The position numbers and the translations under genes were made by a program. Below are positions 8,829-22,712 of a DNA stretch of 24,283 nt, one piece after another. How positions within the stretch are numbered: position 1 is the first letter of the stretch; the number at the start of each line of letters is the position of its first letter. The stretch lies in IMG/VR virus record IMGVR_UViG_3300032291_000873, positions 1 to 24,283 of that record; one strand, given 5' to 3'. The DNA comes from a virus. The notes below the pieces were generated by a model that was not told where the DNA came from, ran no database searches, and saw only the letters and a list, made by a program, of their open reading frames with translations.

Positions 8829-9506
8829 TCAATCTATTATTACAAGCCCCTCAAAATCAAAGACATTCTGAACTTTATGCTCAAATTTCTCTCCATAGAG
8901 TCTGCTTGTTTTCCCATCCCTTACAGCAGATGCTAGGATAATTGGGCTTGAATTAACAGCCAGGAACTCTTCTGCATCCCTAACTGCCTTTGCCATATCC
9001 TGTATTGTTGGAGCAGTGTAAGTTCTGAGCCCCTGGATGGTTACTTCTTGGGGGCATAAAACAATAACCTTATCTATTCCAAACTCTCTTACTGCATCTT
9101 GTATAATTAAAGTTGGGTCTCTTTTGTATGATTGGCTTATGCCAAATGGTGCAACCAGGACATAATTTGAAGGGAGCCCTTCTGCTGGTGTTTTCTCTAG
9201 CTTGTCCAGAATGATATTGGTTTTATCTGCATCCTTGATTGAGTTGTGGGAATAAACAAAGTCATGCCAGGTCTTTTTGCTGTTTATAAACTCTTCATAC
9301 CTAGTTGGCCAAATCTCCAGGTCAATAGTGACTCCCTGCCTGTGGCCAGCCTTTACATAAGAAACCATTTCAAAGACGCCATGATATTGGGCATAGCAAT
9401 CAAAGAACACATCATGCCCTTGGTCTGCTAAATACTTGCAAGCTGGAAGGCATCTAAGCACATCCCCAAGCCTCTGGCTGTATTTGATTGTTCTAGGCTG
9501 AATCAT
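8829..9506 (-). CDS. GT9-like glycosyltransferase (heptosyltransferase-type fold), 225 aa
   Basis: The N-terminus reads KYSQRLGDVLRCLPACKYLADQG, matching the GD...P.l..L pattern of ADP-heptose-type (GT9, GT-B fold) transferases. A later VLVAPFGISQSYKRD and the EEFLAVNSSPIILASAVRD segment match the nucleotide-sugar side of that family (typically PG..k.W and nSspmHlAaA). At 225 residues it is shorter than usual GT9 enzymes (about 320-350), so it may be a minimal or degenerate form. I chose ATG at 9506; an in-frame TTG lies six bases further upstream. It overlaps the preceding glycosyltransferase by 14 bases. It presumably acts with that gene and the two methyltransferases on one glycan; donor and acceptor are unknown. 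Confidence 0.7.
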   Translation of the reverse strand: MIQPRTIKYSQRLGDVLRCLPACKYLADQGHDVFFDCYAQYHGVFEMVSYVKAGHRQGVTIDLEIWPTRYEEFINSKKTWHDFVYSHNSIKDADKTNIILDKLEKTPAEGLPSNYVLVAPFGISQSYKRDPTLIIQDAVREFGIDKVIVLCPQEVTIQGLRTYTAPTIQDMAKAVRDAEEFLAVNSSPIILASAVRDGKTSRLYGEKFEHKVQNVFDFEGLVIID

Positions 9507-10263
9507 CAGCAACGCTCTTGTCTGTTATGAATGGGAAGTAATCTCTTAATCTAACTGGGCTGGTGGTTTGTTGTAGCTTTTCCCATCCTTCAACAAGCCC
9601 TTTATATCCATAGAAATCTTCCTTAAACTCTACCTGCTCCCTGGTGGCATAGGCAAAATGTTCAAAGGTTAAGCCCCAGGCTTCTGTCATTCCCCTGGGA
9701 ATCATCAGCCCATTCACATTTAGCTTGGGTGGCTCATGGCTAACAAACTCAATGCCCCTTCCCCACTTCCAGGCTCTAAACCATTCATACCAGTTGGAGC
9801 CCAAGCCCTCCCTGGTCACAACCTTTTTACTTTGCCCAACATAGTAATTGCAATGGAACTGCATTGCTCTGCCTTCTTCACATCCCTTCAAATGCCCATA
9901 GATTGCATCAAGCTGGTCTGCTCTCCAAATTTCATCAGCATCAACTTCCATAACCACACCTTTTTCTACACCCTGCAAAGCCTCTTTAATCATGGCCAAC
10001 TTTCCCGGGAAAGGCTTGGCTTGCCAATAAACAGAAACATTGGGCTCTTTAATGCTGTTTAGATATTCATGGGTTCCATCAACACTCACAAAGTTCTTGT
10101 GCCATTTATCTGGAACCTGCTTGCACCACCTGGTGCATCCCAGGGGTTCTGAAACTCCCTCTACAATTCTCCACTGCCAGGGAATCTTTAGTTTCTTGAA
10201 CTCATCAAGATGCCTGTTTATGTATGGCATCCCATTGAGAACAATGGTGAAGATTGTCAGCAT
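9493..10263 (-). CDS. Glycosyltransferase family 2-like protein, 256 aa
   Basis: The protein starts MLTIFTIVLNGMPYINRHLDEF, a GT-A-type opening, and carries a DxD-type metal and nucleotide-sugar site in MEVDADEIW (about residues 105-113). The C-terminal half is rich in Trp and Phe (EWFRAWKWGRG). ATG at 10263 overlaps the end of the preceding FkbM-type gene by seven bases and gives the natural family start; an upstream in-frame start at 10299 would lie deep inside that gene. It probably transfers a sugar from a nucleotide donor in the cytoplasm of the infected cell. The acceptor could be a virion protein or a host glycan; this cannot be told from sequence. Confidence 0.8.
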   Translation of the reverse strand: MLTIFTIVLNGMPYINRHLDEFKKLKIPWQWRIVEGVSEPLGCTRWCKQVPDKWHKNFVSVDGTHEYLNSIKEPNVSVYWQAKPFPGKLAMIKEALQGVEKGVVMEVDADEIWRADQLDAIYGHLKGCEEGRAMQFHCNYYVGQSKKVVTREGLGSNWYEWFRAWKWGRGIEFVSHEPPKLNVNGLMIPRGMTEAWGLTFEHFAYATREQVEFKEDFYGYKGLVEGWEKLQQTTSPVRLRDYFPFITDKSVADDSA

Positions 10264-10769
10264 TTTAGTCTGCCATAGATAACACTGATCTCTGAGCAAA
10301 AAGAAACAGAGTCATATCTGTAGCATTCAAAGCCAATAGACTTGAACCAATCCTTAAACTCCTCAAGCCAACGATCTGAGTAGTGTAGCTCAATGGCAAT
10401 TTCTTTTAGATTGTGGACATTCCCAATTTGTAATAGATGGGCTTCATCGCCCTCAATATCACATTTAACATGGGTAATTGAATTTTCAGTTATCCAGGAA
10501 TCCATTTGGAAGGCTGAGTCTGCCTTTTCACACAGGAACTTCCCTTGTGGGTATTGCTGTGAAAGGGTTGCAATGTCTCCCTGGTTGATGTCCACACCCA
10601 TGTAAAATTCTGGCTTTTGAGACAGGAAATGCTTTGCTGTTCCATTTCCATCCTCCCTCTCTGCTTGAGTCCAGAATGCACACCCTAAATCCAGAACTCT
10701 GCCCCTAGCAACATTGAGATGTTCCCAATGAATCTGAGGGGCTTCTGATGTAATTATTCCTTTAATCAT
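10257..10769 (-). CDS. FkbM-type SAM-dependent methyltransferase, 170 aa
   Basis: This protein has the class I SAM-binding motif VLDLGCAFW (about residues 25-33), a post-II acidic motif in YMGVDINQGD, and the FkbM-type signature HVKCDIEGDEAHLL followed by IAIELHYSDRWLEEF. FkbM enzymes methylate hydroxyls, often on sugars or polyketides. I chose ATG at 10769 because it overlaps the preceding stop by ATGA; a start at 10814 would run 45 bases into the previous gene. It sits between another methyltransferase and a glycosyltransferase, which favours O-methylation of a sugar added by the neighbouring enzymes. The class assignment is firm, the substrate is not. Confidence 0.82.
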   Translation of the reverse strand: MIKGIITSEAPQIHWEHLNVARGRVLDLGCAFWTQAEREDGNGTAKHFLSQKPEFYMGVDINQGDIATLSQQYPQGKFLCEKADSAFQMDSWITENSITHVKCDIEGDEAHLLQIGNVHNLKEIAIELHYSDRWLEEFKDWFKSIGFECYRYDSVSFCSEISVIYGRLKC

Positions 10770-11374
10770 AGCTGAAATATGGCGGCTCCATTCCGCACTG
10801 ACCAATCTTCCCACAGCAGTTTTGAAAAGCCTTTCAGCTTGTTGTAATTTGCCAGGTTCTTAATGTCATTCACATCATACAATGCAATAATTGCTTTTTC
10901 TGCCAGGAATGGCCTCACACATCTAAGCTCAGCCTCACCAGAAAATGGGGAGCCATCAATCAGCACAAAATCAAAATTCACCTTATGCTCTATATGGATG
11001 TCCTCGATTGCGTTTGTTTGAAATTGTTGTGCTGTCTTAAAACATTCAGAATACCAACCATTCACGACTTCCAATGGATATTGATTTAGATTGGTTTTTT
11101 GGTTCGTATAAAATTCAAGCACATCCATTTTGTTCATCCACAATTCTCTAGTAACAGCAGAACCATAAATGGAAACGCCGCCTCTTGCAGATAGGTTCAT
11201 TGAATGCCTACCAATGCGATCTGGGTGGTTCTCAATACTGAATAGCCTTTTTGTCCTAATGCATTGGGTTGAGCCATCCCCAGTTCCACCACCAATCTCT
11301 AAGCCAACATCTAGTCCCTCACTATACTTGGCAAGGGCTTTGCCAAATGAATCATGAATGGTTACTTCTTGCAT
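10766..11374 (-). CDS. Class I SAM-dependent methyltransferase, 202 aa
   Basis: Motif I is LEIGGGTGDGST (about residues 25-36), the SAM-binding loop, and a motif-IV-like strand FDFVLIDGSPFSGEAEL lies near residues 134-150, followed by LAEKAIIALYDVND. This arrangement resembles small O-methyltransferases that act on sugars or small molecules rather than DNA methylases: there is no (D/N)PP(Y/W) motif. The start overlaps the end of the preceding 84-residue gene by 13 bases, and the stop overlaps the next methyltransferase start by ATGA. It likely works in series with the FkbM-type enzyme on a glycan. The exact group methylated is unknown. Confidence 0.75.
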   Translation of the reverse strand: MQEVTIHDSFGKALAKYSEGLDVGLEIGGGTGDGSTQCIRTKRLFSIENHPDRIGRHSMNLSARGGVSIYGSAVTRELWMNKMDVLEFYTNQKTNLNQYPLEVVNGWYSECFKTAQQFQTNAIEDIHIEHKVNFDFVLIDGSPFSGEAELRCVRPFLAEKAIIALYDVNDIKNLANYNKLKGFSKLLWEDWSVRNGAAIFQL

Positions 11375-11616
11375 TTTGCCGCTTCCGCTAATGCTTTTTT
11401 GATTGCGTACTCAATCACAGCTTCTGGGTCATGCTTTAAGGCAAGCATCCCAGCCTCATACAATTCCCTCCCCGCCTTCTCATCATAGGTAATATCAACC
11501 TTCACATACTTGGTGGGGTCGATGCGAGACTTGCCAAATTTAATTATACCAAGTTCCTTGGTATTCTCACCCTTCTTGGATTTTCTACACCCAATTATTT
11601 GCTTTGCGTTTTTCAT
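11362..11616 (-). CDS. Small basic hypothetical protein, 84 aa
   Basis: I start this gene at ATG 11616, which follows an AAAGGA stretch and overlaps the end of the large glycosyltransferase gene by 32 bases; a further in-frame start at 11706 would overlap 122 bases and looks less likely. The first half is very basic (KSKKGENTKELGIIKFGKSR), followed by a helical, Ala-rich half (YEAGMLALKHDPEAVIEYAIKKALAEAAK). A cysteine is present near each end (residues 10 and 82). I do not recognise a family. Lying inside the sugar-modifying cassette and linked by overlaps, it could be an accessory or adaptor for the enzymes around it. Confidence 0.6.
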   Translation of the reverse strand: MKNAKQIIGCRKSKKGENTKELGIIKFGKSRIDPTKYVKVDITYDEKAGRELYEAGMLALKHDPEAVIEYAIKKALAEAAKCKK

Positions 11617-13240
11617 ATATTGCTTTTCCTTTCTCGTAAAACTCTGGCTTGTTGTGGTGAACAAGTTGCTGGTCTGCTTCTTTCCCAGTGTGGATTGGGT
11701 TCTCATGAATAAATTTCAAATCCTTTGCCTCAATAACAACTTGGTCGGCATAGGCTCTTTCTGTGAATTCATTGTCGGAATACAAACCATCGGATTCCTG
11801 GTAGTCTGGATGGAATAGCCATCCACCCTGGGTCTCAAGCCTCTTTTTGTTTAGAATAGCCATACAGAGTAGGTTATCTGACCTGTAGCCATCTGATACT
11901 GCCAAGACTTGATCGGTGGTTTTAGAGCCAATTAAAGAGCAAATAGAGGCATCCCAGTGCCTTGGTGGAGCCCAATCATCGGACATCTGCACAATGATGT
12001 CTGAATTGGCCAGTTTTGCCCCCTGGTTCCAGGCATTGATAATGCCACCAGGATTGCACCTAATCGCCTGGTGTGGGGTGTAATCAGTGGAGTCATCATG
12101 ATCTACCATGAAAAGCCATTCTACCTCCAGGGGTTTCTCGGCCAATGAAAGCCATTGGAACCTCCTCTGCCAGGCAACTTGTGGTCTCCCCCTAGTTGCA
12201 TGAACCATGGTGATTCTTGGGGCTGGCTTTAACTTTTTCATCTTGGCAACCTCATCAGCCTTCCCAACACAAGCTGAAGCAGTCTCATATAAGTCCATTG
12301 ATTGCCAACCATAGATTGCCTCAACTTGGTTCCAGTAATGTGAGGATGGTCTGGGTAGGCTCATGGCCGCCCTGGCTGAACCCCATGCCTTAATCCATTG
12401 ACCTCTTCCAGCATATTCCAATGCTGTCCAGTAGTGTGCCTCTCTTCTGTCTGGCTGGAGTGTAATCGCCTGTCCAAGATATTTCAGCCTGTTCTCTGGC
12501 TTTGCACATCTGCCCATATTGCAAAGAACATCATATCTTAATGTGTCCTCAAGGTCTTTGAACATTAAGGCCATTTCACCAAACTCCAGGCACTTGTCCC
12601 AGTTCATGGAAAGGAAATGCTCTTGCTGGGTATAGTATAGGGAGTTGGGGGCTGGCTCCAGGGTGTCTTTTAAGATTGTAAGGTTTCTGTCTGCTGATGC
12701 CTTTTTATATCCATGTGGCTTGTGAACCCTAACCACTTTGTCCACCCCAAAAAGTTTGTCTGGCTCATTGGCAATCAAAGCTTCATGAACCCTGTTCTTC
12801 CATTTGCATTTGCCTTTTCTGCTGGCCATTTCCCTCAATGGTATAAGTCCAGCATTCTGAACATCGTATCTGAATGCAACCAAATCTGCCCCTCTTTTGT
12901 TTGCCTCTTCAATGGCATTATCTACCAGGGCTTCTGCCCCTGGTTGCATCACATCATCAGCATCCACCCACAAAGCCCACTCATTCTTGCAAGCCTCCAA
13001 GGCCGTATTTCTGGCAGAGGCAAAATCATCTACATGATTCCAGCCATTGTTTTTATTTTTATAATGAACAATTCTAGCACCGTGAGCCAATGCAATCTCT
13101 TCTGTTTTGTCTGCCTCAAGGCTCCCCCTAGAGATGCAAACAATAAACTCTTCTGCCATTGGCTTAAACGACTCCAAGCACCTGGCAATATAGGCTTCTT
13201 CATTTCCAGCTATAAGATAAATTGAAATGTCGTGTTTCAT
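11585..13240 (-). CDS. Two-domain glycosyltransferase (GT2-like, with TPR-like middle), 551 aa
   Basis: The N-terminal domain (about residues 1-180) is a GT2/GT-A enzyme: it opens with ISIYLIAGNEEAYIARCLESF and has the metal-binding motif WVDADDV at 91-97. A helical middle (about 195-330) with paired motifs such as ITLQPDRREAHYWTALEYAGRG looks like tetratricopeptide repeats. A second glycosyltransferase-like domain follows (about 342-530) with RITMVHATRGRP, FMVDHDDS at 378-384 and VQMSDDWAPP at 418-426. Two active sites in one chain could add two sugars in sequence. The start has no Shine-Dalgarno sequence; two copies of a GAAATCC motif precede the ATG. This is the first gene of the sugar-modifying cassette between head and tail genes. 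Confidence 0.82.
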   Translation of the reverse strand: MKHDISIYLIAGNEEAYIARCLESFKPMAEEFIVCISRGSLEADKTEEIALAHGARIVHYKNKNNGWNHVDDFASARNTALEACKNEWALWVDADDVMQPGAEALVDNAIEEANKRGADLVAFRYDVQNAGLIPLREMASRKGKCKWKNRVHEALIANEPDKLFGVDKVVRVHKPHGYKKASADRNLTILKDTLEPAPNSLYYTQQEHFLSMNWDKCLEFGEMALMFKDLEDTLRYDVLCNMGRCAKPENRLKYLGQAITLQPDRREAHYWTALEYAGRGQWIKAWGSARAAMSLPRPSSHYWNQVEAIYGWQSMDLYETASACVGKADEVAKMKKLKPAPRITMVHATRGRPQVAWQRRFQWLSLAEKPLEVEWLFMVDHDDSTDYTPHQAIRCNPGGIINAWNQGAKLANSDIIVQMSDDWAPPRHWDASICSLIGSKTTDQVLAVSDGYRSDNLLCMAILNKKRLETQGGWLFHPDYQESDGLYSDNEFTERAYADQVVIEAKDLKFIHENPIHTGKEADQQLVHHNKPEFYEKGKAIYEKRKANNWV

Positions 13241-15848: not shown

Positions 15849-16295
15849 TTAGATGTTCTTAATGCCACGGCTAAGAGCCTCAGCATATTCTTTGGGGTTT
15901 GAAAGCATGACGGCCTTCATGGCCTTCAGCTTCGAAGTCTTATATTCTGCATGAGCAGAAACAAGACCTTCAAAGTTCTTTGGCTCCTCTTTCTTTTCAA
16001 GAGCAACCTCAACAGCGGGTGACGCAGGAATGGGCTTGATGCCAAACTGGGTCAGAACTTTTTTAACAACTTCTGACATCTCAGATTCATCTTCCTTTTC
16101 CTCTTCGTCTTCTTTTTCAACAACAATAGTGGGGGCTTCTTGAGCCTGGACAACTTCCTCTTTCTTGGAATCGTCCTTAACCACTTCGTCTTTTTTCATT
16201 TCATCCTTGGGTTTCATAGAATCCTCAAGGGCGGATAGGCGAACTTTAATTTCATCCATATCCTTTTTATAATCATAACCTTCTTTATTTTCCAT
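15849..16295 (-). CDS. Internal-start scaffolding protein (lambda Nu3-like), 148 aa
   Basis: Within the protease gene and in the same frame, codon 262 is an ATG at 16295 preceded by AAGGAG with a five-base spacer (AAGGAG at 16301-16306), one of the strongest ribosome binding sites in the window. Translation from here gives a 148-residue protein made only of the scaffold domain: MENKEGYDYKKDMDEIKVRL, a long acidic Lys/Glu-rich middle and a helical C-terminus that would bind the capsid protein. In lambda, Nu3 is made in exactly this way from inside gene C. The start signal is read directly from the sequence; use in vivo is inferred. Confidence 0.82.
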   Translation of the reverse strand: MENKEGYDYKKDMDEIKVRLSALEDSMKPKDEMKKDEVVKDDSKKEEVVQAQEAPTIVVEKEDEEEKEDESEMSEVVKKVLTQFGIKPIPASPAVEVALEKKEEPKNFEGLVSAHAEYKTSKLKAMKAVMLSNPKEYAEALSRGIKNI

Positions 16296-17078
16296 TGCTT
16301 CTCCTTGTTTTGTCAAACCATCACCTTCAACAACTGCATTGGGCAGGTCAATGGGGATTGGCTTTCCTCCGGCCATATAGCCGAGTTTCTTTTCTGCTTT
16401 TACGCAAGAACCTGGTTCATAGGGTTTGGAGCCTTTTGCTGGCTTGTAACCATCCCAACATCTTAATTCTTTTACTTTCTCCATGAACTTAATCATTTCC
16501 TCAAACAATCCATTGGTTGCCGCTGGGCTAGAGACCAGGTCAGCAGAGGCAATGCTTTGGGGTCTGATGTAGTCCTTGCCATTGATTGATTCACTCTCAT
16601 TCACAAATGCCAGGGAGATTCCAAACTGGTCTGGAGCCTCATCTGCCATCTCTTTAATCAATCCATAGTGCTGGCTGTTCTTCAAAAGCTTTAGGTCTGC
16701 AACCAATTTATTGCCCTCAATCCTGGCATTCCTTGCAAAGCCGACGACTGCATCCAATCCAGAGCCGTGGTTCATCTTGACCTTCACTCCATTGGGAGCC
16801 TGTTTCATGATGTCCATTGCCTTCTCCAGGCTGAGTTTATCCACAAACAAGTCGTGCCCCTTAGCCTCACCAATCTCAAGAATGCTTACTCCACCAAAAT
16901 CATTTGCCTCCATTTCCTCATCCCCACATTCCATCTCTTCCTCATCTCTGTAGGTGCTATAAGCCACAGCCGCCCTTTGGGTCTCATCTGGGAATTTTGC
17001 CACAGCTTCTTCATCTCCCATGAATCGAGAAACAAAGTCCTGTTCGGACTCATCACCACTAGGTAGGGGCAGGGGCAT
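15849..17078 (-). CDS. Prohead protease fused to scaffold domain, 409 aa
   Basis: Residues 1-45 carry a module (SGDESEQDFVSRFM...YPDETQRAAVAYSTYR-like) that is common at the start of phage head proteins. The protease core (about 60-200) shows candidate catalytic residues His104 (KMNHGSG) and Ser155 (FGISLAF) and ends with the SADLVSSPAATNGLF signature typical of U35/S78-type prohead proteases. A Cys-containing CWDGYKPAKG...GSCVKAEKK motif follows at 207-230. From about residue 262 comes a very acidic, Lys/Glu-rich coiled-coil scaffold. The protease should cut itself and the scaffold once the procapsid is built. The ATG lies inside a 14-base palindrome (17073-17086), which may limit initiation. 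Confidence 0.85.
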   Translation of the reverse strand: MPLPLPSGDESEQDFVSRFMGDEEAVAKFPDETQRAAVAYSTYRDEEEMECGDEEMEANDFGGVSILEIGEAKGHDLFVDKLSLEKAMDIMKQAPNGVKVKMNHGSGLDAVVGFARNARIEGNKLVADLKLLKNSQHYGLIKEMADEAPDQFGISLAFVNESESINGKDYIRPQSIASADLVSSPAATNGLFEEMIKFMEKVKELRCWDGYKPAKGSKPYEPGSCVKAEKKLGYMAGGKPIPIDLPNAVVEGDGLTKQGEAMENKEGYDYKKDMDEIKVRLSALEDSMKPKDEMKKDEVVKDDSKKEEVVQAQEAPTIVVEKEDEEEKEDESEMSEVVKKVLTQFGIKPIPASPAVEVALEKKEEPKNFEGLVSAHAEYKTSKLKAMKAVMLSNPKEYAEALSRGIKNI

Positions 17079-17094: not shown

Positions 17095-17592
17095 TCAAAG
17101 TAGGTCGCCGTCAGCCTGGCGGTAGGATTCTTTCACCTTACCACCACCTGCCATGAGCAGAAACTTGTTCACCCTAGCCAATGCCCAGGCATTCCTAGAG
17201 TTGGGCTTACCACCACCAATGGTTGGCCTAAAGCTTGTTGAGTAGGCTCCAGCACCCCTTCTAAATACTTTCTTTAGGGCTCCCAGGGATGGGGCTTTCT
17301 TGCCAGGGTTCTTGTCTTTCCATTCCTTTAGCTTGTTCTTGATTGATTCCTCTGCACCCTCCCCAATCTCAATCTTTCCACCAGTGCTTTTTGTAGCCGC
17401 TGAACCTGGCTTGTTCTGCTCAGAACCCTTGATTCTTTCCTTTGGTGGGGCTGGAGTCTGAGAGGCAGACTTTGCACCTGGTCTGGCTAGTTCCTTTTCT
17501 TTGGGTGGCTCACTACCAAAGAGCCTTCTCCACCATAAGTCCTTAGTCTCCTGGTAGGATTCTGGAGTAAAATCTTCTTCAGTTATTAGCAT
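17095..17592 (-). CDS. DUF5824-like head-region protein, 165 aa
   Basis: The N-terminal half is Pro/Lys-rich and probably unstructured (residues 25-75). The C-terminal 70 residues carry a compact motif set: KKVFRRGAGAYSTSFRP, then SRNAWALARVNKFLLMAGG and VKESYRQADGDLL. I recognise this G.GAYs.S.RP...RNAWA.ARVN.FL...Y...D.DLL pattern as the DUF5824-type domain often encoded near portal and protease genes in environmental phages. Function is unknown. It lies two bases after the portal stop and ends 17 bases before the protease gene, so a head assembly or internal virion role is likely. Confidence 0.72.
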   Translation of the reverse strand: MLITEEDFTPESYQETKDLWWRRLFGSEPPKEKELARPGAKSASQTPAPPKERIKGSEQNKPGSAATKSTGGKIEIGEGAEESIKNKLKEWKDKNPGKKAPSLGALKKVFRRGAGAYSTSFRPTIGGGKPNSRNAWALARVNKFLLMAGGGKVKESYRQADGDLL

Positions 17593-17594
17593 AA

Positions 17595-20500
17595 CTAGAA
17601 TTTCAGCTTCGGCCCTCGGAGCTCGTTGTAGGCGTCATATATATCCTTAGAATATCTTTTGCCAGCCGTGTGTCCAGCAAAAGTTTCAGCCACAAATTCC
17701 AGTGGGTCTGTTGTGGCATATTTGCTTACCTTGGCCGCCAATGGCCTAATCCTGGCTCGTTGCTCTTTAGGTAGCTTGCTCCACGTCCAAATGTTATTAA
17801 ACCCATCTCTGCCAATTATTTGTCCATGGAGTGAATGCCCGTGCTCATGTGCAACAACGCTTGGAGAAGCCCAATGACCAGATTTAACTGAAAGCACGAT
17901 GGAATCAGAAAACTCTGTAATCTGTCTATATCTTGCACCTTTAGCATGATTAAATTCAACCTCTTGATAATTGCTTCTCCCTGTTGCCCAGGCAACCGCA
18001 CTGCCCATAATCATTCCCCTGCCAAGGCTTTTAGGGGTTCCATATCCAGCCTTCTGAAGGTCGGCCACCTCTTTTTGTATAAGTTTTGCGGCATCAATAT
18101 GATCTGGCAAATCAACATATTTAATGCCCATTTTTAGAAGTTCATTCTCAACCTTTTCAACGGCCTTCTTTTTCTTAACAGATGTATTTCTTCCCTCTTT
18201 TTCTTGTGGGGGAGTCTTGGATGGGGGTGGAGGAGTTTTGCCTGTAGGTGCGGAAGGAGGAGGAGGCGGTGGAGGAGCAGGTGGCTTGGGTGCTGGAGGG
18301 GCTGGCTTTTTAATGATTTTGCCACCTGGTCTCTTGGGGCTATATCCACCAACAAGCTTTGGCCTTCCATAGCCAGAAGAACAGGTATTCTTATCATCAA
18401 AAGTTCCATCGTCCTTCATTCCGCATGGGTTTAGAATTTCTTTGTCATCAGCAAATTCAGTTTCATCTTTTGGTTCTGAAAGGTTCTTGTCTCTTGATTC
18501 CATCTGGCCAACAACTTTCTTTGCCCAGGAATAGCCAGCATCTCCACCCCACCCATTCCAGGCTTGCCAGCCCTTGCCCTGCTCATCCCAGGTTTCACCC
18601 TTCTTATCGACTTCATGGCGATCAAAGAATGCCTTCATTCTGCGGACGGTGTCTGGAGAGAACTTAACCCCATTGATCAAATCCCTAGCCCTGGCAATGC
18701 CCACAGGAGTCATGCCCTTTTGGCTGGCTGGCTTCTCTTCCCTTACATCCAAAGCCCTCTTGGCTGACTCCCTGGCTCCTTCTGGAGGGGTAAAATCAAT
18801 CCCATCATACTTGCCCAACTCAATGCCACCCATCATTCCAGCAATCAGCATTTTCCATTCATGCTGGCTGAGATTCTGAAGTTCTTCTAAATTACTTTTT
18901 TTTTGAGAAAGCCCTGTTGGGGCAACTGGGGCTTTTGGTGTTTCTGGAACTGAAGCCCCACCCTGGCCTTCATCCTGTTGCCCATCCTGGGCGGCTTGCT
19001 TTTCTTTTTCTGTGGTGGGAATGATTTTTCCAGACTGCACACCAGCAACAATGCCAATGGCCTGTTCCCTTGAAATGGTTGGGAAGGCGGCCGTAATAAC
19101 TGAAACTGCGCCCTCCTTGGACAACGCACCAGCCGCCACTGCATTGATAACATTGATAAGGGATGCAACCTGGGCTCCATTGAGGCTTTGCCCAATAACA
19201 TCCTCTTGGCCTTCCACCTGCTGGCCGTCTTGGGTTGTTTGTCCTGGTTGCCCTGCCTGTGCTGGCTGGCCTGTGGGCAAAAGAATTTCAGAAACTGCCT
19301 GGGCTGGAACTCCATATTCCTTTGCCAGGTCTTGAATCATCTTAGTTTCAATGGCTCTCGCCCTAAAGGCCGCTTCAACATCCAGCCCTTTCTCTGCATA
19401 GATTGAACTTGCAGTAGTCAGTCCGGCCTTAAACTCTGCAATGTTTGCCATAGATTCCCGTCCCAGGTCGATAGAAACATTGGCTCCAAAATTGAAAATG
19501 CCCTTGGTTGTTTTGGCTCCATTGCCACTGATCATTCCCCTAGCCACACCATCAGCAATAACAATGTTCTTTATTGGATTCAGAACCTTATCATTAAGTA
19601 GCTTCTGGTATCTGTTGAAGGTTCTTCCAGCCTGTTGCATTTCAAGCCTAGCTGTGGGGCCGGACATGGCAGATGGGTCGACAGCAAAGGAGTAGGGGAT
19701 TCCAAGTCCCATGCAGATATTTCTCAATAAGATTTTATGAAACTCTGCAAAGGCTCCACTGGGTCTGCTGGGGCCGTCTGGGAAAATGATGTCCTCTCCT
19801 GGCTCCAAATAGCTGACCTTGCCAGATTCCATTGATTCCAATTTGATTTGTTGGTTATCAAAGTTTTCCTCTGTGGTTAATGCACTAAGGTCAGAGGCGT
19901 TGTTGTTTGACCTCTTCACAACTGCACTCTGGGAGCTGGCAACCTTCGCGGCCAGCTTTTCAAAATTCACAATATCATAAATATCAGTGGCATCATTGAT
20001 GGCAGTGTGGAAAGCAGACACGCCCCTGTATTGGTCAATCCGAAGTGGGTCAAAATAGTGGAATGCCTGGCTGGCTGAAATGGTTACCTGGTAGGAGTAG
20101 AAATCCCCAATGCTACGATTGTAAATATCATAAGCAGTGGGAGCCCCAGTGTCCCTATCAATATGAATGCCACCAATAAGCTCCAGGCTTGTATAAGTTT
20201 TGTATGGGTCACCGAGTCTATCAGATTCAATGCCCTGGAGTTTTAAGTCTCCATTCTTATCTCTGACCAATACAAAAAGGAAATCTCCATCACGGAGCAT
20301 GGACATGGTTGCAACCTGCATAAGCGTTGAGCCTGTGTGCCTGGTTGATAGGTCGCAATTATTAAACCATTCATTCCAATACGCCTCAATCTCAGTGTTG
20401 GTCTTGGGGTTGTCTGTCCTGGCTTGGTATGTAATGTTTGATGCAACATGACTTGCAAACTTCATCAATATGGAGCGAACCAGGCCATTGTTTTCTGCCA

Positions 20501-20714
20501 AGTCTCTTGCCCTCTTCATCAACTCTACACGATCATAATTTGATCTAAAGTCCTCTGCACCAGATAGATTGCTCGGCCCCCGCCTCTCCCTAGTGTATTT
20601 TACTGCATCATATTCAAACTTGGTAAGGGCTTTTTTTGCCATCAGCCTTTGAACCCCAGCCTGGGGATTTACAAATGAAACAAGCTTATCCAGGAATGTT
20701 TGTTTAAGCTTCAT
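17595..20714 (-). CDS. Portal protein fused to C-terminal zincin-type metallopeptidase, 1039 aa
   Basis: Residues about 1-490 form a lambda gpB-type portal: FEYDAVKYTRERRGPSNLSG..., RDLAENNGLVRSILMKFASHV, and FHKILLRNICMGLGIPYSF. A segment with LNGAQVASLINVINAVAAGALSKEGAV (about 507-533) occurs in many portal C-termini. After this come a domain with TPVGIARARDLINGVKFSPDTVRRMKAFF and WNGWGGDAGYSWA (about 668-730), a Cys motif NPCGMKDDGTFDDKNTC, and a Pro-rich linker (about 800-840). The last 200 residues hold HEHGH at 956-960, a perfect HExxH zinc site, and EFVAE at 1006-1010, which offers the third ligand. Lambda portals have about 530 residues. The dodecameric portal would carry up to twelve peptidase domains. 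ATGA overlaps the upstream gpW-like stop. Confidence 0.87.
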   Translation of the reverse strand: MKLKQTFLDKLVSFVNPQAGVQRLMAKKALTKFEYDAVKYTRERRGPSNLSGAEDFRSNYDRVELMKRARDLAENNGLVRSILMKFASHVASNITYQARTDNPKTNTEIEAYWNEWFNNCDLSTRHTGSTLMQVATMSMLRDGDFLFVLVRDKNGDLKLQGIESDRLGDPYKTYTSLELIGGIHIDRDTGAPTAYDIYNRSIGDFYSYQVTISASQAFHYFDPLRIDQYRGVSAFHTAINDATDIYDIVNFEKLAAKVASSQSAVVKRSNNNASDLSALTTEENFDNQQIKLESMESGKVSYLEPGEDIIFPDGPSRPSGAFAEFHKILLRNICMGLGIPYSFAVDPSAMSGPTARLEMQQAGRTFNRYQKLLNDKVLNPIKNIVIADGVARGMISGNGAKTTKGIFNFGANVSIDLGRESMANIAEFKAGLTTASSIYAEKGLDVEAAFRARAIETKMIQDLAKEYGVPAQAVSEILLPTGQPAQAGQPGQTTQDGQQVEGQEDVIGQSLNGAQVASLINVINAVAAGALSKEGAVSVITAAFPTISREQAIGIVAGVQSGKIIPTTEKEKQAAQDGQQDEGQGGASVPETPKAPVAPTGLSQKKSNLEELQNLSQHEWKMLIAGMMGGIELGKYDGIDFTPPEGARESAKRALDVREEKPASQKGMTPVGIARARDLINGVKFSPDTVRRMKAFFDRHEVDKKGETWDEQGKGWQAWNGWGGDAGYSWAKKVVGQMESRDKNLSEPKDETEFADDKEILNPCGMKDDGTFDDKNTCSSGYGRPKLVGGYSPKRPGGKIIKKPAPPAPKPPAPPPPPPPSAPTGKTPPPPSKTPPQEKEGRNTSVKKKKAVEKVENELLKMGIKYVDLPDHIDAAKLIQKEVADLQKAGYGTPKSLGRGMIMGSAVAWATGRSNYQEVEFNHAKGARYRQITEFSDSIVLSVKSGHWASPSVVAHEHGHSLHGQIIGRDGFNNIWTWSKLPKEQRARIRPLAAKVSKYATTDPLEFVAETFAGHTAGKRYSKDIYDAYNELRGPKLKF

Positions 20715-20947
20715 GGGCCGAATTTTGCATAGGTGGTTCTAATTCTTGTGCCAGATGCAGACTGAATAGCAAGAGTCAATTCAGCAATAATCTCTCTAAC
20801 CTCAGACAGGTTTGCCCTGCTGAACGATCTTCCAGCAATTGAATAACTTGCACCAGCCACCGCAATTGCCTCTAGACATGAAACATACTTGTCACGCAGG
20901 GAATTTAAGGTGGCGATGGGTAAGCCAATGAAATCACCCTTCGCCAT
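20711..20947 (-). CDS. gpW-like head-tail joining protein, 78 aa
   Basis: A small protein between large terminase and portal, the place of lambda gpW. It begins MAKGDFIGLPIATLNSLRDKYVSCLEAIAVAGASYSIAGRSFSRANLSEVREIIAELTLAIQ, two helices joined by a small beta turn, as in gpW, which binds the portal after packaging and keeps DNA inside. I start at ATG 20947, since AGGAG lies ten bases upstream; a TTG at 20956 would sit on the ribosome binding site. The start overlaps the terminase end by 14 bases and the stop overlaps the portal start by ATGA. Confidence 0.82.
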   Translation of the reverse strand: MAKGDFIGLPIATLNSLRDKYVSCLEAIAVAGASYSIAGRSFSRANLSEVREIIAELTLAIQSASGTRIRTTYAKFGP

Positions 20948-22712
20948 TATTCTCAATCTCCTCTGTCAAGCCTGCGGGCATGATCTTCAGCCTCTTATGC
21001 AAAGCCGCACCCACAATGGCCATGCATTCACAATCAAGTAAGTGGTTGTGCTTGCCTATCTGCTTCCATACCCTCCTGGTTCTGCCCGTCATGGGATTCC
21101 TAACCTCTACCTTTGTTTCAGATGAAATGTGAACCTTCCAAACTTCTGGTGTGTCCTCTGCAATAAATCCATCAGTTTTCAAAAGGTTAGATAGGATGTC
21201 TTTGATGGCTGGGTTTGACCACCGCCAAACTGGGCAAAGCTTCCATTTCCAGCCCTCCCTGGAGCCAACATTCTTACCACTGAATGGGTCTCCATTGGCA
21301 ATCCTAGCAAATGGTCTTTGAACCCTCTGCTCCCCCACAATCTCTGAGAAGCTTGATTTGTCTGAACCAACCAGGGCAATAAAACCCCATTGGCAACAAT
21401 GCAAATAAACATCACGGGTTTGGTCACCAGAATCAATGAAGGTTGCTTTAGGCTCAACATTGAACTCATCTGCTTTGGCTTTGATGTCTCCCCAGGTTTC
21501 AAGCCTCCCAGCCCACACCAATCTGCTTTTGCCGTCCATGTCCCAAGCCCTCACAACACACCAGGCATGGAAGCCGCCGGCCTCTTGAATATCACAAGCC
21601 ATGACAAGCTTCTCACCCATGTTCACTTCACCAAGTTTATATTTGCCTGGTATAATCTCTACCCTCTCTTGGTCATGCTCCATCCAAGGTTCTGCAAGAA
21701 CCCTATTCACAAAGTCCTGTAGCCCTATGATTCCGCTGTGCTTGTCCTGTAAGAATTTAACTGCCAGGCTTCCAAAGGTTACCCAAGGCGGATATAGGCC
21801 ATTCAAATGATACGATCTTCTGCCTGGCTCACCCTTTGGGTTGGTTGGCCTCCACTCACCCTGCCTCAACATCATTGTTTTGTGTCCATCCCTAATTGGC
21901 TTCTGGCAGTTTTCACATTCATAGTAGGCTGAATTTTTTACAATCCCAAAGTCATACACTCCATCTTCAAGCTTTGCCTTTTCATCCCACTTCACTCTCT
22001 CCCAAATAAGCTTTTGTTTGTGTCCACAATGGGGGCATGGAACAAAGAAGAATCTCATGTCTCCCTTCTGCCACTCTGCCCAGATGATTGAATCTGCTGT
22101 GGTTGGTGTGCTGGTGGAAACAACCAGGTGGTTTGGATAGGTGGCAACTCTGGCTTCTGCCAACTGCAATGCTCCAGCCTCTTTTGAATTTGTGCCATCA
22201 CTAAACTTATCAACCTCATCGAGCATCAAAAGTGAAACCGACCTGGAGGAAAGATTGGCTGGGCTGTTTGAGCCAACGAACCAAAGGCTCATTTTTCTAA
22301 AGTGCTGTTCGAGTATCTTTATTTTATCTGTGTTCTCTGGCTTTTCCTTTGCCAGGATTGGGCAATCGTCCACCATTGGCAACCACCTGGTTTCTGAGAA
22401 TGATCTTGCCAGTGCTTCAGATGGCATCACCCAAAGTGCTGGGCATGGTTCAACTGCCAGCCTGTAGGAAAGCCCTGCAAGAATTGTGGTTGTCTTGGAT
22501 GTCTGGGCTCCCCACACCAGGGTAATTCTCCTAACAGAATCATTCCCAAAAGCCTCCAGGGGCTCCCTCACATAGGGAGTAAGATTTGTGCTGTACGGGC
22601 CTGGAATGTTTGTGATTCTTGGTGAAAGAACTAGACTCTGCTCACACCATTCTGAAATTGATAATTGCTTCTTGGGAATCAAGAAGCTTTTCATGAAGGG
22701 TACAAGCTTCAT
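20934..22712 (-). CDS. Terminase large subunit (gpA-like), 592 aa
   Basis: The motor of DNA packaging. The ATPase half shows a Walker A-like WGAQTSKT (67-74) and Walker B LLMLDE (161-166). Two CxxC pairs, C226/C229 and C266/C269, form a zinc-ribbon-like insertion, as is typical for lambda gpA-type terminases. The nuclease half has acidic residues in the expected order: D374 in MACDIQEAGG, D427 in TFIDSGDQ and D560 in NHLLDCE. Length is close to lambda gpA (641). It follows the HNH gene with no gap and precedes the gpW-like gene with an overlap. This family usually cuts at cos-type sites. Confidence 0.95.
   Translation of the reverse strand: MKLVPFMKSFLIPKKQLSISEWCEQSLVLSPRITNIPGPYSTNLTPYVREPLEAFGNDSVRRITLVWGAQTSKTTTILAGLSYRLAVEPCPALWVMPSEALARSFSETRWLPMVDDCPILAKEKPENTDKIKILEQHFRKMSLWFVGSNSPANLSSRSVSLLMLDEVDKFSDGTNSKEAGALQLAEARVATYPNHLVVSTSTPTTADSIIWAEWQKGDMRFFFVPCPHCGHKQKLIWERVKWDEKAKLEDGVYDFGIVKNSAYYECENCQKPIRDGHKTMMLRQGEWRPTNPKGEPGRRSYHLNGLYPPWVTFGSLAVKFLQDKHSGIIGLQDFVNRVLAEPWMEHDQERVEIIPGKYKLGEVNMGEKLVMACDIQEAGGFHAWCVVRAWDMDGKSRLVWAGRLETWGDIKAKADEFNVEPKATFIDSGDQTRDVYLHCCQWGFIALVGSDKSSFSEIVGEQRVQRPFARIANGDPFSGKNVGSREGWKWKLCPVWRWSNPAIKDILSNLLKTDGFIAEDTPEVWKVHISSETKVEVRNPMTGRTRRVWKQIGKHNHLLDCECMAIVGAALHKRLKIMPAGLTEEIENNGEG

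What the first reader, a model, noticed from the sequence alone, without database searches (positions are those of the whole stretch)
17595..20714. Portal protein fused to a C-terminal HExxH metallopeptidase
The portal gene codes for 1039 residues, about twice the lambda portal. After the portal core it carries a small domain of unknown role, a Cys motif, a Pro-rich linker and a last domain with HEHGH (956-960) and a downstream EFVAE (1006-1010) that could supply the third zinc ligand. Zincin domains are known as toxin or effector tips on phage head proteins of the MuF type, but on a portal the peptidase would be placed in up to twelve copies at the DNA exit channel. It might mature the head, process an ejected protein or act in the host cell as an injected effector. 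The linker suggests the domain could be released by the prohead protease.
Basis: partly seen in the sequence, partly recalled or inferred. Interest (0 to 1): 0.78.

Follow-up and report, generated by a model that had tools for sequence, protein, structure and literature searches.

The report
Phage portal carrying swappable protease domain
A phage's DNA-gateway protein ends in a real zinc-protease domain, and near-identical phages swap that end for quite different enzyme-like domains, which suggests the gateway protein is used to carry interchangeable weapons that are probably fired into the bacterium with the DNA.

Summary
On the minus strand, 17595-20714 encodes a 1039-aa lambda-family portal ending in an intact HExxH domain. 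AlphaFold gives a confident model (pLDDT 88). Its best structural match is the M34 lethal-factor protease domain (Z 9.7), then Pro-Pro endopeptidases (Z about 7). All 48 distinct relatives found with a motif-masked profile keep HExxH plus a downstream ExxAE. The same domain ends three portal families and MuF proteins.

The larger finding is polymorphism. Among 80 contigs whose portal core is 78-100% identical, the end past residue ~800 is replaced wholesale by zincin A, a second zincin, JAMM-like, ART-like or other domains, or is absent. Class changes at least 25 times on the core tree. The swapped block, about 0.86 kb in the window, includes the first ~31 codons of the next ORF. That leader co-varies with the zincin (partial Mantel r=0.90) and is under purifying selection; zincin B instead carries a separate 82-86-aa neighbour. 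Maturation roles are disfavoured because complete portals lack the domain.

Best reading: a portal-borne polymorphic effector cassette, probably delivered with the DNA, with a cognate partner. Portal-enzyme fusions and MuF toxins are known; portal-borne swapping with partners is a new variant. Proteolysis, release, delivery and target are untested.

The parts
17595..20714 (-). portal gene, 1039 aa, lambda-family portal with C-terminal modules
19605..20564 (-). portal core matched by PF05136 (residues 51-370); TIGR01539 matches 65-462
19035..19196 (-). SLNGAQV... segment (residues ~507-560), also seen in HK97-type portals of L036 and, without the SLNGAQV start, repeated in L033
   Evidence: sequence comparison by eye
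18489..18812 (-). constant 'small domain', residues 635-742, PHROG 2859, role unknown; also at the N-terminus of the major-capsid ORF of Roseobacter phages
18381..18425 (-). Cys motif CGMKDDGTFDDKNTC (residues 764-778), the usual last conserved segment before an effector domain
18195..18377 (-). Gly/Pro-rich stretch ending in a poly-Pro linker (residues 780-840); sequence identity to other cassettes is lost at ~residue 800
17598..18194 (-). zincin A domain (residues 841-1039), M34-like fold
17835..17849 (-). HEHGH (956-960), two zinc ligands and the catalytic Glu (inferred)
17685..17699 (-). EFVAE (1006-1010), probable third zinc ligand E1006
17461..18315 (-). swapped cassette: linker + zincin + stop + leader of the next ORF, absent or replaced in near-identical phages
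   Evidence: window vs L045, L042
17500..17592 (-). cassette-specific leader peptide MLITEEDFTPESYQETKDLWWRRLFGSEPPK, start of the next ORF, 2 bases after the portal stop; candidate cognate inhibitor or docking peptide
17095..17592 (-). ORF of 165 aa: leader + DUF5824 (PF19141, residues 102-163). In effector-less relatives DUF5824 is fused in frame to the portal

Best explanation
The portal is the anchor of a polymorphic effector system. SHOWN: the C-terminus holds an intact, conserved zincin domain of M34-like predicted fold. In phages with nearly the same portal core, everything from ~residue 800 to ~31 codons into the next ORF is exchanged as one cassette for other zincin, JAMM-like, ART-like or unidentified domains, or is missing. 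The leader of the next ORF travels and co-varies with the zincin. INFERRED: the domain hangs from the portal crown by the Pro-rich linker into the capsid interior, in up to 12 copies. It is freed (perhaps by self-cleavage in the Pro-rich linker, perhaps by the prohead protease), leaves with the DNA and cleaves a host protein early in infection. The leader peptide (zincin A), or the separate 82-86-aa protein (zincin B), keeps the enzyme silent or docks it during assembly.
For: Zincin. The same domain on other head proteins: HK97-type portals L033/L035/L036 (PF04860), Mu-type portal of Halorubrum virus BLv36 (PF06074), MuF proteins of Hardycor1, L037 and L040 (PF04233), and beside an ADP-ribosyltransferase domain in L034. 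Structural neighbours in BFVD include 'Minor capsid protein' and 'Lethal factor' entries of siphoviruses. Polymorphism: 66 complete portals plus the window (67) fall into 24 zincin A, 17 zincin B, 4 ART-like, 2 zincin-like C, 1 JAMM-like, 1 unidentified and 18 without effector. There are 25 class changes on the core tree against a minimum of 7, with zincin A gained or lost at least 14 times on well-supported branches. Junctions: the window and L045 are 94.5% identical over 4.5 kb up to residue 799, unrelated, then 95% identical again 46 codons past the portal stop; L098 and L105 differ by one block. Partner: zincin-leader partial Mantel r=0.90, P=2e-4, given core distance; leader dN/dS 0.11, zincin B partner 0.19. 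Delivery by head proteins is the accepted model for MuF toxins (PMC5576092) and polyvalent proteins (PMC5512222).
Against: No direct evidence of proteolysis, packaging, ejection or a host target. A portal-anchored domain needs a release step that is not shown. Leader-zincin co-variation could come from physical linkage alone. The ART-like and JAMM-like labels rest on motifs read by eye; the AlphaFold model of the ART-like domain failed (pLDDT 43). Foldseek itself found no PDB match at E<=0.001.
Confidence: 0.62

Rival explanations
1. Self-processing protease: the zincin cuts only the portal itself (for example the Pro-rich linker) or neighbouring head proteins during maturation, as proposed for MPTase domains of polyvalent proteins.
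For: The second-best structural neighbours are Pro-Pro endopeptidases (Z about 7), and the linkers of zincin A, zincin B and JAMM-like fusions are mostly rich in PP, while the ART-like ones and L085 have 0-1 PP beyond the constant GRPP. PMC5512222 proposes autoprocessing by MPTase domains.
Against: Complete portals of the same family lack any such domain, or carry ART-like or other domains, so it cannot be a required maturation step. L093 has an intact zincin A and no PP in its linker. Frequent replacement fits effectors better. Self-release and effector action could both be true.
Confidence: 0.2
2. Head-maturation protease needed to build the virion.
For: It is a protease-like domain on a head protein.
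Against: 18 complete relatives without any effector domain. The window also has a protease-like ORF at 15849-17078, in the usual place before the capsid gene; that identity is by position and sequence impression only, as Pfam gave no match.
Confidence: 0.04
3. The leader of the next ORF is a docking peptide that re-attaches DUF5824 to the portal's new C-terminus instead of an inhibitor of the enzyme.
For: Without an effector, DUF5824 is fused to the portal; with zincin A it is cut off and gains a cassette-specific leader.
Against: In L026 a similar leader is a free 45-46-aa ORF, and zincin B has a free 82-86-aa partner not joined to DUF5824, which fits an inhibitor or chaperone better. Not decisive.
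Confidence: 0.35
4. Inert or decaying domain, carried along without activity.
For: None found.
Against: Catalytic residues kept in all 48 distinct domains; dN/dS 0.08-0.24.
Confidence: 0.02

Closest known systems
MuF polymorphic toxins of phages (PMC5576092; Zhang et al. PMC3482391)
   Same: Head protein with a variable C-terminal toxin/effector domain, metallopeptidases among them (20% of 191 putative MuF toxins); the very same zincin family sits on MuF proteins of Hardycor1, L037 and L040.
   Different: Carrier is the portal itself (up to 12 copies) instead of MuF (1-2 copies per capsid in SPP1). MuF toxins were reported only in temperate phages; no integrase was found in 11 related records of 32-39 kb, which may be incomplete. 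The partner is a leader on a virion-module ORF or a small separate protein.
Portal fusions with PBECR, 2H, InPase, Nudix domains and polyvalent proteins (PMC5512222, PMC9503650)
   Same: Enzyme domains fused to portals, proposed to be injected; zincin-like MPTases are common in polyvalent proteins.
   Different: The passages I read name no portal-zincin fusion, no exchange of effectors on near-identical portals and no cognate partner.
M34-type zincins (lethal-factor protease domain, Pro-Pro endopeptidases)
   Same: HExxH plus downstream Glu; predicted fold Z 9.7 over 166 residues (rmsd 4.0, 12% identity) and about Z 7.
   Different: Sequence does not reach the Pfam ATLF cut-off (E=0.21); none of the cell-entry parts of the toxin; carried by a phage portal.
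T4 Alt and internal proteins
   Same: Head-packaged proteins; gpAlt ~40 copies, non-essential for assembly, and IPI is injected (PMC9958956); Alt injection is described in PMC5512222.
   Different: Free core proteins, not fused to the portal; not a protease.

Membership tests
lambda-family phage portal (PF05136) | profile match over the portal core and position next to the terminase gene | tested here: met
   PF05136 E=5e-56, PHROG 21 E=2.5e-57; TerL (GpA) at 20934-22712 immediately upstream
zincin metallopeptidase | HExxH in a helix plus a downstream conserved acidic/His ligand | tested here: met
   HEHGH in helix 113-134 and E166 in helix 164-176 of the model, invariant in 25 sequences; 48 of 48 distinct domains. 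Zinc binding itself not tested
zincin metallopeptidase | peptidase activity | not testable with these tools
   needs biochemistry
M34 (lethal-factor-like) peptidase | fold similarity over the catalytic domain | tested here: met
   VIA-align Z 9.7, 166 residues, rmsd 4.0; the plain Foldseek search gave no E<=0.001
M34 (lethal-factor-like) peptidase | sequence profile PF07737 above its curated cut-off | tested here: not met
   11.7 bits against 27.4, E=0.21: M34-like fold, not filed as a member
MuF polymorphic toxin | N-terminal MuF domain | tested here: not met
   carrier is a PF05136 portal; relatives of the zincin do sit on MuF
MuF polymorphic toxin / polymorphic toxin in general | constant N-terminal carrier with exchangeable C-terminal toxin domains | tested here: met
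polymorphic toxin in general | cognate immunity gene directly downstream | tested here: inconclusive
   cassette-specific, conserved leader or small ORF directly downstream; inhibition untested
MuF polymorphic toxin | temperate phage | tested here: inconclusive
   no PF00589 or PF07508 in 11 related records of 32-39 kb; no relative in two genome-contig scans; records may be incomplete
polyvalent protein | two or more effector domains in one delivered polypeptide | tested here: inconclusive
   window has one recognised enzyme domain; L007 appears to have two zincin-like domains and L027 an extra ParB-like segment, both by eye
polyvalent protein / injected effector | packaged and ejected into the host | not testable with these tools
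   needs virion proteomics or a translocation assay

The most novel reading that the evidence does not exclude
Portals of this uncultured phage group are carriers of a full polymorphic effector-immunity system: each cassette brings an enzyme and its own tiny inhibitor, encoded as the leader of a virion protein or as a small ORF directly downstream of the portal, and the zincin frees itself by cutting its Pro-rich linker as DNA is ejected.
Probability: 0.25. Interest if true: 0.86.

Novelty: new variant of a known kind. Interest (0 to 1): 0.7.

Why it matters
If right, the portal, present in up to twelve copies and required in tailed phages of this kind, is a third kind of delivery platform beside MuF and free internal proteins. 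Its effectors turn over faster than the phage backbone, which points to an arms race over something inside the host, perhaps defence proteins. The natural series of near-identical phages with different cassettes is a ready experiment for what each effector buys. The leader peptides may be very small natural inhibitors of M34-like zincins, which can be tested directly.

Tried and rejected
(1) Chance HExxH: rejected by conservation, masked profile and fold. (2) Head-maturation role: rejected as essential by complete portals without the domain. (3) PP-rich linker as a universal self-cleavage site: linker PP content tends to follow the metallopeptidase classes, but L093 has zincin A and no PP, and the events are few, so it stays an idea. 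(4) Structure of the ART-like domain: AlphaFold failed with 5 shallow sequences (pLDDT 43), so no fold search was run and ART stays a motif-based label (R...SFSP...ExE in L078/L087; weak PHROG 16619 minor head protein match). (5) Looking for hosts: two genome-contig scans found no relatives of the zincin or the portal. (6) Foldseek against PDB gave no significant hit; the zincin match comes from the VIA-align second look at Foldseek's own candidates. (7) Direct sequence search against solved structures found nothing relevant. (8) Pfam search of the zincin B partner found nothing above threshold. (9) L038 (zincin on what looks like a prohead-protease ORF) has no Pfam or PHROG support, so I do not count it as a separate carrier.

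Full report
Observation. The gene is on the minus strand, 20714 to 17595, and reads 1039 codons without a stop. Residues 51-370 are a lambda-family portal (PF05136, E=5e-56; PHROG 21). The 'small domain' is residues 635-742 (PHROG 2859); it also forms the N-terminus of the major-capsid ORF in Roseobacter phages, so it is a mobile head-protein module and not part of the enzyme. The Cys motif is CGMKDDGTFDDKNTC, residues 764-778.

Is it a zincin? Sequence search in phage records found the same C-terminal domain on the MuF protein of Halorubrum phage Hardycor1 and at the end of ORF39 of Halorubrum virus BLv36 (E=6e-4 and 9e-4). An alignment scan of IMG/VR gave 32 loci. In 25 aligned sequences down to ~20% identity the two His, the Glu and a later E-F-V-A-E are invariant. 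With those columns masked, a profile still pulled out 48 distinct domains in the loci held; 47 pass an HExxH + ExxAE test and the 48th (HEMAH, EAVAE) is intact too. The loci were partly gathered with patterns over these motifs, so this set leans towards intact members. The portal survey, gathered on the core alone, also shows no degenerate zincin A. dN/dS within the domain is 0.08-0.24. AlphaFold with the 25 sequences gives pLDDT 87.8 and pTM 0.87; the HExxH lies in helix 113-134 and the candidate third ligand E166 (portal E1006) starts helix 164-176. Foldseek alone found no PDB match at E<=0.001, but VIA-align of its candidates puts the M34 lethal-factor protease domain first (Z 9.7, 166 residues, rmsd 4.0), then Pro-Pro endopeptidases (about 7), then Wss1 and aminopeptidases, nearly all zincins. 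In predicted viral structures the top hits are entries named 'Lethal factor' and 'Minor capsid protein' of siphoviruses. The sequence does not reach the Pfam ATLF cut-off, so I call the fold M34-like and do not file it as M34.

The carrier varies. Beside lambda-type portals the domain ends HK97-type portals (L033, L035, L036; PF04860), a Mu-type portal (BLv36; PF06074) and MuF proteins (L010, L037, L040; PF04233), and occurs in a protein with an ADP-ribosyltransferase domain (L034). A domain that recurs at the end of unrelated proteins whose common property is sitting in the head is most simply head-packaged cargo.

The cargo varies on a constant carrier. A scan with the portal core alone (residues 1-470) returned 80 contigs at 78-100% identity. 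Sixty-six portals read to their stop; with the window that is 67. They end in zincin A (24), a second coiled-coil zincin with HEYGHQIEDG (17), ART-like domains (4), a zincin-like domain with YEE(S/A)AHQ (2), a JAMM-like domain with THNHPNDSGFSRQD (1), an unidentified domain (1), or no effector at all (18, of which 17 end in DUF5824). Zincin B matches the C-terminal part of a 'minor head protein' PHROG (E=1.4e-8) and one ART-like domain another (E=8e-5), so the pool is shared with MuF-type proteins. The ART-like, JAMM-like and zincin-like C labels are my readings of motifs; the AlphaFold model of the ART-like domain failed. On the tree of core DNA the class changes at least 25 times (least possible 7), zincin A at least 14 times on supported branches; L051 (zincin B) and L052 (zincin A) are sisters about 1% apart in the core.

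The junctions are sharp. The window and L045 are 94.5% identical over 4.5 kb up to residue 799; they are then unrelated, and identity of 95% resumes 46 codons past the window's portal stop. L098 (zincin A) and L105 (none) differ only by a block from residue 750 to 1068. So the exchanged unit in the window is about 17461-18315: Pro-rich linker, zincin, stop, and the first ~31 codons of the next ORF. In effector-less relatives DUF5824 is fused in frame to the portal; with zincin A or ART-like cassettes it is a separate ORF that starts within a few bases of the portal stop, often with a 4-base overlap, behind a cassette-specific leader.

A cognate partner. The zincin A leaders share a pattern (roughly F-x-x-E/K-x-Y/F-x-x-A-x-x-x-Y/W-x-x-x-L-F/Y) and co-vary with the zincin even after allowing for core distance (21 cassettes, partial Mantel r=0.90, P=2e-4). 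Adjacent sequence moved as one block would also correlate, so this shows co-inheritance, not binding. The leaders evolve as protein (pooled dN/dS 0.11). In L026 the leader is a free 45-46-aa ORF; the HK97-type portal L036 has a leader-like start on the next ORF, again with a 4-base overlap; the MuF carriers L037 and L040 have short overlapping ORFs of other sequence. Zincin B has a separate conserved 82-86-aa neighbour (dN/dS 0.19). An enzyme with a tightly coupled cognate partner looks like toxin and immunity, but inhibition is not shown.

How it probably works. Portal C-termini form the crown or barrel inside the capsid (P22: PMC4992974; T4: PMC9958956). The zincin therefore most likely hangs on a long linker into the DNA-filled interior in up to twelve copies. 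To act in the host it must be cut loose. The Pro-Pro endopeptidase resemblance and the PP-rich linkers of most metallopeptidase cassettes, compared with the PP-poor linkers of ART-like ones, suggest self-release, but L093 is a counter-example. Delivery with DNA is the accepted model for MuF toxins (PMC5576092) and polyvalent proteins (PMC5512222). The fast exchange of effectors on a constant backbone fits targets under selection in the host, such as defence proteins; no target is known.

Known or new. Portal fusions with PBECR, 2H, InPase and Nudix domains are in the literature (PMC5512222, PMC9503650), and metallopeptidases make up 20% of MuF toxins (PMC5576092). I found no report of a portal-zincin fusion, of effector exchange on near-identical portals, or of leader-type partners, in an open-access library that lacks most subscription journals. 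MuF toxins were reported only in temperate phages; here no tyrosine integrase or large serine recombinase was found in 11 related records of 32-39 kb, though these may be incomplete, and no relative was found in two scans of 84,980 genomes. I rate it a new variant of a known kind.

Noticed in passing
8829-13240 (- strand): A run of sugar-transferase-like and methyltransferase-like ORFs (227, 268, 185, 202, 551 aa) lies between the capsid and tail genes, an unusual place; it may modify the virion or the host surface. Identities are by eye only.
   Followed up: no
L044:8149-8406 and equivalents in L049-L083: Zincin B portals are followed 8-9 bases later by a conserved 82-86-aa ORF with no Pfam match, a candidate cognate immunity or chaperone protein.
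   Followed up: partly
L007:2-2230: One portal appears to carry two zincin-like domains, an YEEAAHQ type upstream and zincin A at the end, each preceded by a Cys motif.
   Followed up: no
L027:1290-4643: A portal with zincin A has an additional segment resembling a ParB-like domain (VDVEYNIDTKKYELLDGYHRYLKA) behind an extra Cys motif.
   Followed up: no
L041:4327-8013: A 1229-aa protein holds three HEIGH zincin-like repeats of this family.
   Followed up: no
L011 (OQ850970.1 21115-23130): ORF39 of Halorubrum tailed virus BLv36, annotated hypothetical, is a Mu-type portal fused to the same zincin family, so the fusion also exists in an archaeal virus; HGTV-1 gp247 (L012) is a solo version.
   Followed up: partly
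18381-18425 and relatives; 15849-17078: The two-Cys motif (CG..xGxF...NxC) precedes nearly every effector domain on several head proteins, and a related two-Cys segment (CWDGYKPAKGSKPYEPGSC) sits in the protease-like ORF; its role is unexplained.
   Followed up: partly
L001, L043, L044 and others, between residues ~600 and 730: An extra Cys-rich module (CGNCAAFNQT...CEIFDFKCAAKRTCDAW) comes and goes in portals of this family, independently of the effector class.
   Followed up: partly
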